The notes under the pieces were generated by a model. That model was given only the letters and a program-made list of their open reading frames with translations. It was not told where the DNA came from and did not search any database. A stretch of DNA of 64,000 nucleotides from NCBI GenBank assembly GCA_014905825.1, contig JACGCN010000039.1, forward strand, positions 124,001 through 188,000, in the 5' to 3' direction. Shown here piece by piece: positions 53,788-54,335 of this stretch. The translations under genes and the position numbers were made by a program. This DNA comes from Lyophyllum atratum (Eukaryota; Basidiomycota; Agaricomycetes; Agaricales; Lyophyllaceae). Position 1 is the first letter of the stretch, and each line of letters starts with the position of its first letter.

Positions 53788-53793
53788 TATAAG
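53788..53793 (+). promoter_or_regulatory. TATA box of the repeat-peptide gene
   Basis: TATAAG within CTATAAGTAG lies 145 bases before the ATG at 53933. A pyrimidine-rich stretch follows (about 53816-53860), as often seen at start sites of strongly expressed fungal genes. The rest of 53353-53932 shows no gene. Confidence 0.55.
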
Positions 53794-53932
53794 TAGCGGC
53801 GCCGACCGCTTTTTTCGAGACAATCCGCACCCATTTCCACCTATCTACTCACTCGCTCCTCCGAACTCCATAATTTTAGGTATTTATGCTTGGCCGTCCA
53901 TCCTCCTTCTCGAAACTGACTTCCAGATAGCC

Positions 53933-54335
53933 ATGTTCCGTTCTCTCTTCGTCTTGGTTGCTGTCGCCTTCGCCGCTGTCTCTGCCACGTGTGTCACTTG
54001 TCGAAGCCTTAATTATTACTCCTTACTGATATGTCTTTTATCTAGTGAACTTGGCACTATGTACGTCATTCTCAGTCCGTGTTTCTAAAGCATGCCTTGA
54101 ATCATGCTCCTCACAGCGCTGGCTTCCCTGTCCCTGATCTCACCAACGTCAAGTTGACCGCTCGTGAACCCGTCGCGTGAGCATCCGTCCTCTTATCATC
54201 ATAAAGCTACCATCTGACCGTCGCATGTAAATCAGAGAGGCCAAGGCCTACATGTACGTTTGACTAATATGCAAGTCAGTGAGTGATGGACTGACCTCTA
54301 TCTTAAGTGCTGGCTTCCCCGTCCCCCACATCTAA
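53933..54335 (+). CDS. Tiny five-exon gene for a secreted peptide precursor with two IAGFPVP repeats
   Basis: Exons 53933-53988, 54046-54060, 54117-54176, 54236-54253 and 54308-54335 give 58 residues. A signal peptide (MFRSLFVLVAVAFAAVSA) is followed by TELGT, then the first repeat IAGFPVPDL, a spacer (TNVKLTAREPVAEAKAY) and a second repeat IAGFPVPHI at the extreme C-terminus. All four introns are phase 2, so exons 2, 3 and 4 (15, 60 and 18 bases) are symmetric. Both short spacer exons end in AT before a GTACGT donor, and both repeat exons begin with near-identical GCTGGCTTCCCNGTCCC, so a two-exon module appears duplicated. A TATA box lies upstream. No dibasic Kex2 site and no CaaX end are present. 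I know of no family. It could be a processed peptide precursor, but function is unknown. All junctions have good GT-AG signals. Confidence 0.75.

What the first reader, a model, noticed from the sequence alone, without database searches (positions are those of the whole stretch)
53933..54335. Modular, multi-microexon gene for a 58-residue secreted peptide with duplicated IAGFPVP motif
Seen: a signal peptide, then two copies of IAGFPVP (one ending DL, one HI at the very C-terminus), encoded by five exons of 56, 15, 60, 18 and 28 bases. All four introns are phase 2. Both repeat exons are preceded by a tiny spacer exon ending AT before a GTACGT donor, which indicates duplication of a two-exon module. 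Skipping or duplicating exons keeps the frame, so repeat number could vary by splicing or between strains. Known: modular repeat precursors with a signal peptide occur in fungal RiPPs (dikaritins), but those have Kex2 dibasic sites, absent here. Inference: a secreted peptide precursor of a type I do not recognise.
Basis: partly seen in the sequence, partly recalled or inferred. Interest (0 to 1): 0.82.

Follow-up and report, generated by a model that had tools for sequence, protein, structure and literature searches.

The report
Mushroom secreted-peptide precursor in tiny exons
A Lyophyllum mushroom and the termite-farmed fungus Termitomyces share a tiny gene, cut into five short exons in Lyophyllum, that most likely makes a small secreted peptide trimmed like a yeast mating pheromone, although fungi of this group do not use that kind of pheromone for mating.

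Summary
In detail: five exons (56, 15, 60, 18, 28 nt), four phase-2 introns, a 58-residue product with IAGFPVP twice. The gene is real. A second syntenic copy in the assembly, read as the other haplotype, keeps all GT/AG ends and intron lengths; exons differ at 8 of 177 sites, introns at 37 of 226, with no amino-acid change from residue 20 on. A public Lyophyllum atratum protein equals that copy with introns 1, 2 and 4 removed and intron 3 kept. A 77-residue Termitomyces protein becomes a gap-free 58-residue homologue (33 of 58 identical) if 19 residues are read as a retained intron 2; YIAGFPVP is intact near its C-terminus. I read the gene as the precursor of one small peptide, YIAGFPVPHI, freed by cleavage after the conserved Arg40 and trimming of the dipeptides EP-VA-EA-KA, as in alpha-factor. 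All processing is inferred. It fails the KEP definition (no dibasic site, two repeats). Duplication is supported for the start of exons 3 and 5, not for a two-exon module. Repeat number is two in all three sequences. New variant of a known kind; three protein searches found it only in two Lyophyllaceae genera.

The parts
53788..53796 (+). TATA-like core promoter TATAAGTAG, identical in the other copy
   Evidence: position; conserved in the alignment; function inferred
53880..53926 (+). possible 5'UTR intron (GTATTT..TTCCAG, 47 nt, with CTGAC before the acceptor)
   Evidence: read from sequence; inference only
53933..53988 (+). exon 1, signal-peptide-like MFRSLFVLVAVAFAAVSA plus two bases of codon 19
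   Evidence: both allelic amino-acid changes (V9A, T19I) fall in codons that begin here
54046..54060 (+). exon 2, 15-nt microexon (ELGT and two bases of codon 24)
   Evidence: identical in the other copy
54117..54176 (+). exon 3, repeat copy 1 (AGFPVPDL), then TNVKLTAR with Arg40, then EPV
   Evidence: copy 1 7 of 8 identical in Termitomyces, Arg40 conserved
54236..54253 (+). exon 4, 18-nt microexon (EAKAY), end of the X-Pro/X-Ala linker and first residue of the predicted peptide
   Evidence: identical in the other copy
54308..54335 (+). exon 5, repeat copy 2 (AGFPVPHI) and stop; C-terminus of the predicted peptide YIAGFPVPHI
   Evidence: 3 allelic differences, all synonymous; YIAGFPVP 8 of 8 identical in Termitomyces

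Best explanation
A functional gene for a secreted pre-pro-peptide. The signal peptide is removed in the ER (inferred from sequence). A Kex2-type protease of the Golgi cuts after the conserved single Arg40 (KLTAR|EPVA; inferred). A Ste13-type dipeptidyl aminopeptidase then takes off EP, VA, EA and KA and stops at Tyr-Ile, leaving the C-terminal decapeptide YIAGFPVPHI (inferred). Its C-terminus is the end of translation, so no second cut is needed. Copy 1 (AGFPVPDL) stays in the pro-region, as a vestigial copy or as part of a second product between signal peptide and Arg40. The peptide would be an extracellular signal, between hyphae or towards another organism (inference).
For: Gene real and under selection: 8/177 exon against 37/226 intron differences, Fisher p=1.8e-4, dN 0.016, dS 0.14; residues 20-58 dN 0; same intron lengths in both copies. 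Homologue in Termitomyces with Arg40, Tyr49 and YIAGFPVP conserved. In it a retained phase-2 GT-AG intron of 57 nt can sit at 1 of 58 positions, exactly the place of the Lyophyllum exon 2/3 junction, and its removal gives an ungapped 58-residue match, 33 identical. Linker EPVAEAKA: all four second positions A or P, 1 in 70 permutations. The genome has Kex2-type proteases (P-domain; catalytic part of one of them nearest to Kexin chains, E=1e-70) and DPP IV-family genes (one stretch nearest to FAP and DPP IV chains, E about 1e-15). Peptides consistent with X-A/X-P removal in Pleurotus, and cuts after single Arg when Coprinopsis precursors are expressed in Pichia, are reported (PMC9769878).
Against: No transcript, peptide or phenotype data. 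No dibasic site. In Termitomyces one dipeptide is AD, so trimming could stall at ADGPYIAGFPVPRV; having at least 3 of 4 A/P there is expected from composition (0.79). The 1-in-70 figure is not corrected for choosing the register. Copy 1 is almost as conserved as copy 2, which a mere pro-region does not explain. Which DPP IV-family member, if any, is a Golgi Ste13 was not tested. Only two genera.
Confidence: 0.55

Rival explanations
1. A small secreted protein of about 40 residues that works intact (surface or effector-like), the repeat being two binding or structural segments, without endoproteolysis.
For: No dibasic sites; both copies conserved, 7 of 8 and 8 of 8; the distance between the copies is the same in both genera.
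Against: The 8-residue linker after Arg40 is nearly free to change (1 of 8 identical) but keeps Pro/Ala at 3 of 4 second positions; no cysteines; Arg40 conserved.
Confidence: 0.25
2. Both copies are released as separate related peptides (copy 1: about 21-22 residues from signal peptide to Arg40; copy 2: the C-terminal decapeptide).
For: Copy 1 conserved (7 of 8). In PMC9769878 several detected peptides of KEP 490115 came from between the signal peptide and a single Arg.
Against: Copy 1 has no X-A/X-P leader and no basic site right after DL; Termitomyces copy 1 is AGFPSP, so the two copies need not act alike.
Confidence: 0.13
3. A chance open frame or decaying gene, the exon model being an artefact.
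For: The two public gene models each appear to keep a different intron, and the window's own copy is not listed among the proteins found.
Against: Purifying selection between the two copies; homologue of another genus with the same C-terminal motif.
Confidence: 0.03

Closest known systems
Basidiomycete KEX2-processed repeat proteins with STE13 motifs (e.g. Pleurotus MSGVAADW precursors, Coprinopsis KEP 490115; PMC9769878, PMC6339444)
   Same: Signal peptide, repeated short core, X-A/X-P dipeptides between a basic site and the core, Agaricomycete, small linear peptide predicted.
   Different: No dibasic site, two copies instead of three or more, last copy at the C-terminus, different core sequence, coding sequence cut into microexons.
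Ascomycete alpha-pheromone precursors
   Same: Layout signal peptide / pro-region / basic site / X-A, X-P / core; predicted core of 10 residues.
   Different: Single Arg rather than KR; the Pfam scan of the protein gave no family; basidiomycetes use a-type pheromones for mating (stated in PMC9769878).
Cryptococcus Qsp1 quorum-sensing peptide (PMC7537855)
   Same: Basidiomycete; short secreted peptide (11 residues) matured from a pro-peptide (passages).
   Different: Matured outside the cell by the protease Pqp1 and imported through Opt1; sequences were not compared; absence of a repeat is recalled.
Schistosome micro-exon genes
   Same: Products from genes with many tiny exons and differential splicing (title seen in a reference list; the rest recalled).
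   Different: No splicing variation shown here; microexons are frequent in the P450 genes of Phanerochaete chrysosporium (nearly one-third, PMC1184071).

Membership tests
KEX2-processed repeat proteins (KEPs) | signal peptide | tested here: inconclusive
   Hydrophobic N-terminus ending VSA by hydropathy; no dedicated predictor run.
KEX2-processed repeat proteins (KEPs) | dibasic sites (KR, RR, KK; also RK in Umemura) between repeats | tested here: not met
   No dibasic pair in the protein; definitions read as passages.
KEX2-processed repeat proteins (KEPs) | at least three repeats | tested here: not met
   Two copies; threshold read.
Alpha-type pheromone precursor | STE13 X-A/X-P dipeptides after the basic site | tested here: met
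   EP VA EA KA in Lyophyllum (1 in 70 permutations). Termitomyces AP AP AD GP is 3 of 4, which composition alone gives in 79% of permutations.
Alpha-type pheromone precursor | KR/RR/KK site before the dipeptides | tested here: not met
   Single Arg40 only.
Alpha-type pheromone precursor | acts in mating through a cell-surface receptor | not testable with these tools
   No functional data.
Dikaritin RiPP | UstYa/DUF3328 modifying gene in a cluster with the precursor | tested here: not met
   13 UstYa matches scored in the genome, none on contig C85 or C64; 5 of 10 neighbouring open frames scanned have a Pfam match over the cut-off, none of them UstYa.
Basidiomycete a-type (CaaX) mating pheromone | C-terminal CaaX (recalled) | tested here: not met
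   No cysteine at all; ends PHI.
Micro-exon gene (schistosome type) | alternative splicing of frame-neutral microexons in vivo | not testable with these tools
   8 of 8 skip combinations of exons 2-4 stay in frame, but no transcripts were available.

The most novel reading that the evidence does not exclude
An extracellular peptide signal of Lyophyllaceae, shared by Lyophyllum and the termite symbiont Termitomyces, in which splicing of frame-neutral microexons decides which product is secreted: the pro-peptide with both copies, or forms without Arg40 or without copy 2. The public gene models, which each appear to retain a different intron, might then reflect real isoforms.
Probability: 0.1. 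Interest if true: 0.7.

Novelty: new variant of a known kind. Interest (0 to 1): 0.42.

Why it matters
Agaricomycetes carry alpha-factor-like peptide precursors whose purpose is unknown, and the two published surveys that I looked into require dibasic sites and at least three repeats. This gene passes neither filter, and both public models of it appear to keep an intron, so it stands for a class of precursor that such surveys would miss. The predicted peptide is short and can be synthesised, so the question what such peptides do in basidiomycetes becomes testable in two related fungi, one of them a symbiont of termites.

Tried and rejected
Paralogues. The own genome was searched with the window protein (the gene and its C64 counterpart), with the exact AGFPVP code (6 places, 4 of them in the two copies; the other 2 bear identical motif letters on two contigs, and I read one of them, L003, where the motif lies in a longer open frame without an AG in the right register before it, by eye; the reversed control pattern gave 4 + 2) and with 701 bases of DNA (the same two copies). 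The search with the Termitomyces protein found nothing, not even the window's own gene, so it was too insensitive to exclude diverged paralogues.

Wider homologues. Three searches of 5.8 billion proteins gave the same two proteins, 2 of 7, 2 of 71 and 2 of 1813 candidates; the last used a longer query so that longer, many-repeat relatives would pass the length filter. No DNA of other fungi was searched, so unannotated homologues cannot be excluded.

Module duplication by likeness of exons 2/4 and introns 2/4: not supported. Likeness of the Termitomyces insert to Lyophyllum intron 2 at letter level: not shown (53 of 300 shuffles reach the score; intron 4, 35 of 300); only its placement fits. 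In the same call a 57-nt phase-1 intron could sit at 6 positions of that protein and a phase-0 one at none; none of the six is at the alignment gap. The bacterial promoter scan is irrelevant to a fungus. Structure prediction was not run: little to gain from a 58-residue precursor with so few relatives.

Literature. Listings only; no paper holds AGFPVP, the three locus tags, or 'lyophyllum atratum' with 'termitomyces' and 'genome'. Passages or named sections: PMC9769878, PMC6339444, PMC7329392, PMC7537855, PMC11121469, PMC1184071, PMC4014442 (60, not used). Umemura type #7, which includes Termitomyces, was noted; its repeat sequence was not in the part I read.

Full report
What is there. The gene lies at 53933-54335 on the + strand with exons of 56, 15, 60, 18 and 28 nt and introns of 57, 56, 59 and 54 nt, all GT..AG and all phase 2. 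The product is MFRSLFVLVAVAFAAVSATELGTIAGFPVPDLTNVKLTAREPVAEAKAYIAGFPVPHI. A TATA-like box lies at 53788 and a possible 5'UTR intron at 53880-53926 (inference). Of 10 neighbouring open frames scanned, 5 have a Pfam match over the cut-off: COA3, CDC14, a gamma-tubulin complex component, an aldehyde dehydrogenase and SPC19. None suggests a peptide-modifying cluster. UstYa genes occur in the genome (13 matches scored) but none on this contig.

Where it comes from. The window lies in a 64.8-Mb assembly. A second copy of the region on contig C64 aligns at 90% over about 3 kb including the flanks. Since the Kex2-type and DPP IV-type matches also turn up in pairs on different contigs, I read the assembly as holding two haplotypes; this is inference. 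The public protein P0002, named Lyophyllum atratum FPV67DRAFT_1472653, is letter for letter the C64 copy with introns 1, 2 and 4 removed and intron 3 kept. That points to the organism and shows that an independent annotation chose the same three introns; it is a gene model, not proof of splicing.

Is it real. Between the two copies the exons differ at 8 of 177 sites and the introns at 37 of 226 (Fisher p=1.8e-4). Six of the eight differences are synonymous; the other two are V9A in the signal peptide and T19I at the exon 1/2 junction, next to the likely signal-peptide cut and possibly the first mature residue. From residue 20 on there are four differences, all synonymous (dN 0, dS 0.14); four random changes would leave that part untouched in 0.6% of 20,000 simulations, and eight random changes would alter at most two residues of the whole in 0.9% (the simulation did not exclude stops). 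Exons and introns show no indel between the copies. So the frame, including the two microexons and the last exon, is under constraint.

The Termitomyces homologue. P0003 (J132_10400 of Termitomyces sp. J132, and a second entry H2248_006788 whose species name is cut off after '[T' in the listing) has 77 residues. Lyophyllum and Termitomyces belong to Lyophyllaceae. It aligns with one gap of 19 residues. A retained phase-2 GT-AG intron of 57 nt can sit at only 1 of 58 positions in that protein, and this is the place of the Lyophyllum exon 2/3 junction (shuffled proteins allow it at that place in 3.7% of 20,000; a phase-1 intron of that length could sit at 6 other positions, a phase-0 one at none). 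Without these 19 residues the two proteins are both 58 long and match without a gap, 33 of 58 identical. Similarity of the insert to Lyophyllum intron 2 at letter level was tested and not shown. Taken together the Lyophyllum model calls introns 1, 2 and 4, and in the Termitomyces model introns 1, 3 and 4 are either removed in the same places or absent.

What is conserved. Identity by region: signal peptide 11 of 18; residues 19-24 2 of 6; copy 1 AGFPVPDL 7 of 8; residues 33-40 4 of 8 including Arg40; linker 41-48 1 of 8; YIAGFPVP 8 of 8; last two 0 of 2. A conserved C-terminal octapeptide behind a freely changing linker behind a conserved single Arg is what a processed peptide precursor would leave.

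How it probably works. After Arg40 the Lyophyllum linker reads EP-VA-EA-KA, four dipeptides of the X-Pro/X-Ala kind removed by Ste13 in alpha-factor maturation; all four in register happens in 1 of 70 permutations of those residues (not corrected for choosing the register). The next dipeptide, YI, would stop trimming, leaving YIAGFPVPHI. In Termitomyces the linker reads AP-AP-AD-GP; three of four fit, which composition alone would give in 79% of permutations, so this neither adds nor removes much. The genome has Kex2-type proteases (nearest solved chains Kexin, E=1e-70) and DPP IV-family genes (nearest solved chains FAP and DPP IV); whether one is a Golgi Ste13 was not tested. That Agaricomycetes carry and process alpha-factor-like precursors with X-A/X-P motifs, and that products ending at single arginines appear when such precursors are expressed in Pichia, is reported in PMC9769878 (sections read). 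Knockouts of six such precursors in Coprinopsis gave no phenotype in axenic culture, so a role is open. Every processing step here is inference.

Coordinates, exon sizes, phases and repeats are right. The two-exon module duplication is not supported beyond the repeated start of exons 3 and 5. Frame-neutral skipping is true on paper. Views of fungal microexons differ: nearly one-third of the P450 genes of Phanerochaete chrysosporium have them (PMC1184071), while a 2024 paper states that functional ones had not been described before in filamentous fungi (PMC11121469). Repeat number does not vary in the three sequences at hand.

Against known families. It is not a KEP by the published definitions (no dibasic site, two repeats), not a dikaritin (no UstYa on its contig), not a CaaX pheromone (no cysteine). 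It works most like an alpha-factor-type precursor with a single C-terminal core. I call it a new variant of a known kind, seen so far in two genera of Lyophyllaceae; three protein searches found no other member, but the two public models of this gene already differ from the spliced reading, so unannotated members elsewhere are likely.

Noticed in passing
L002 (G000:C64) and P0002: The public Lyophyllum atratum gene model keeps intron 3 of the C64 copy, which shifts the frame and loses the conserved C-terminal YIAGFPVPHI; likely a mis-annotation, or an isoform.
   Followed up: yes
P0003: The public Termitomyces model (77 aa) very probably retains a 57-nt intron in frame at the exon 2/3 junction.
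   Followed up: yes
L009-L012 (G000:C105 and C1): Two Kex2-type protease genes lie side by side, matches about 3.0 kb (C105) and 3.8 kb (C1) apart, on two contigs read as two haplotypes; Coprinopsis is reported to have three kex2 genes (PMC9769878).
   Followed up: partly
G000:C94, C1/C65, C68/C130: UstYa (DUF3328) genes, some close together, in a basidiomycete; possible dikaritin-type clusters.
   Followed up: no
window 54061-54116: Intron 2 of the window's copy lacks a YTRAY branch-site motif while the C64 copy shows TTGAT (by eye); splicing of intron 2 might differ between the two copies.
   Followed up: partly
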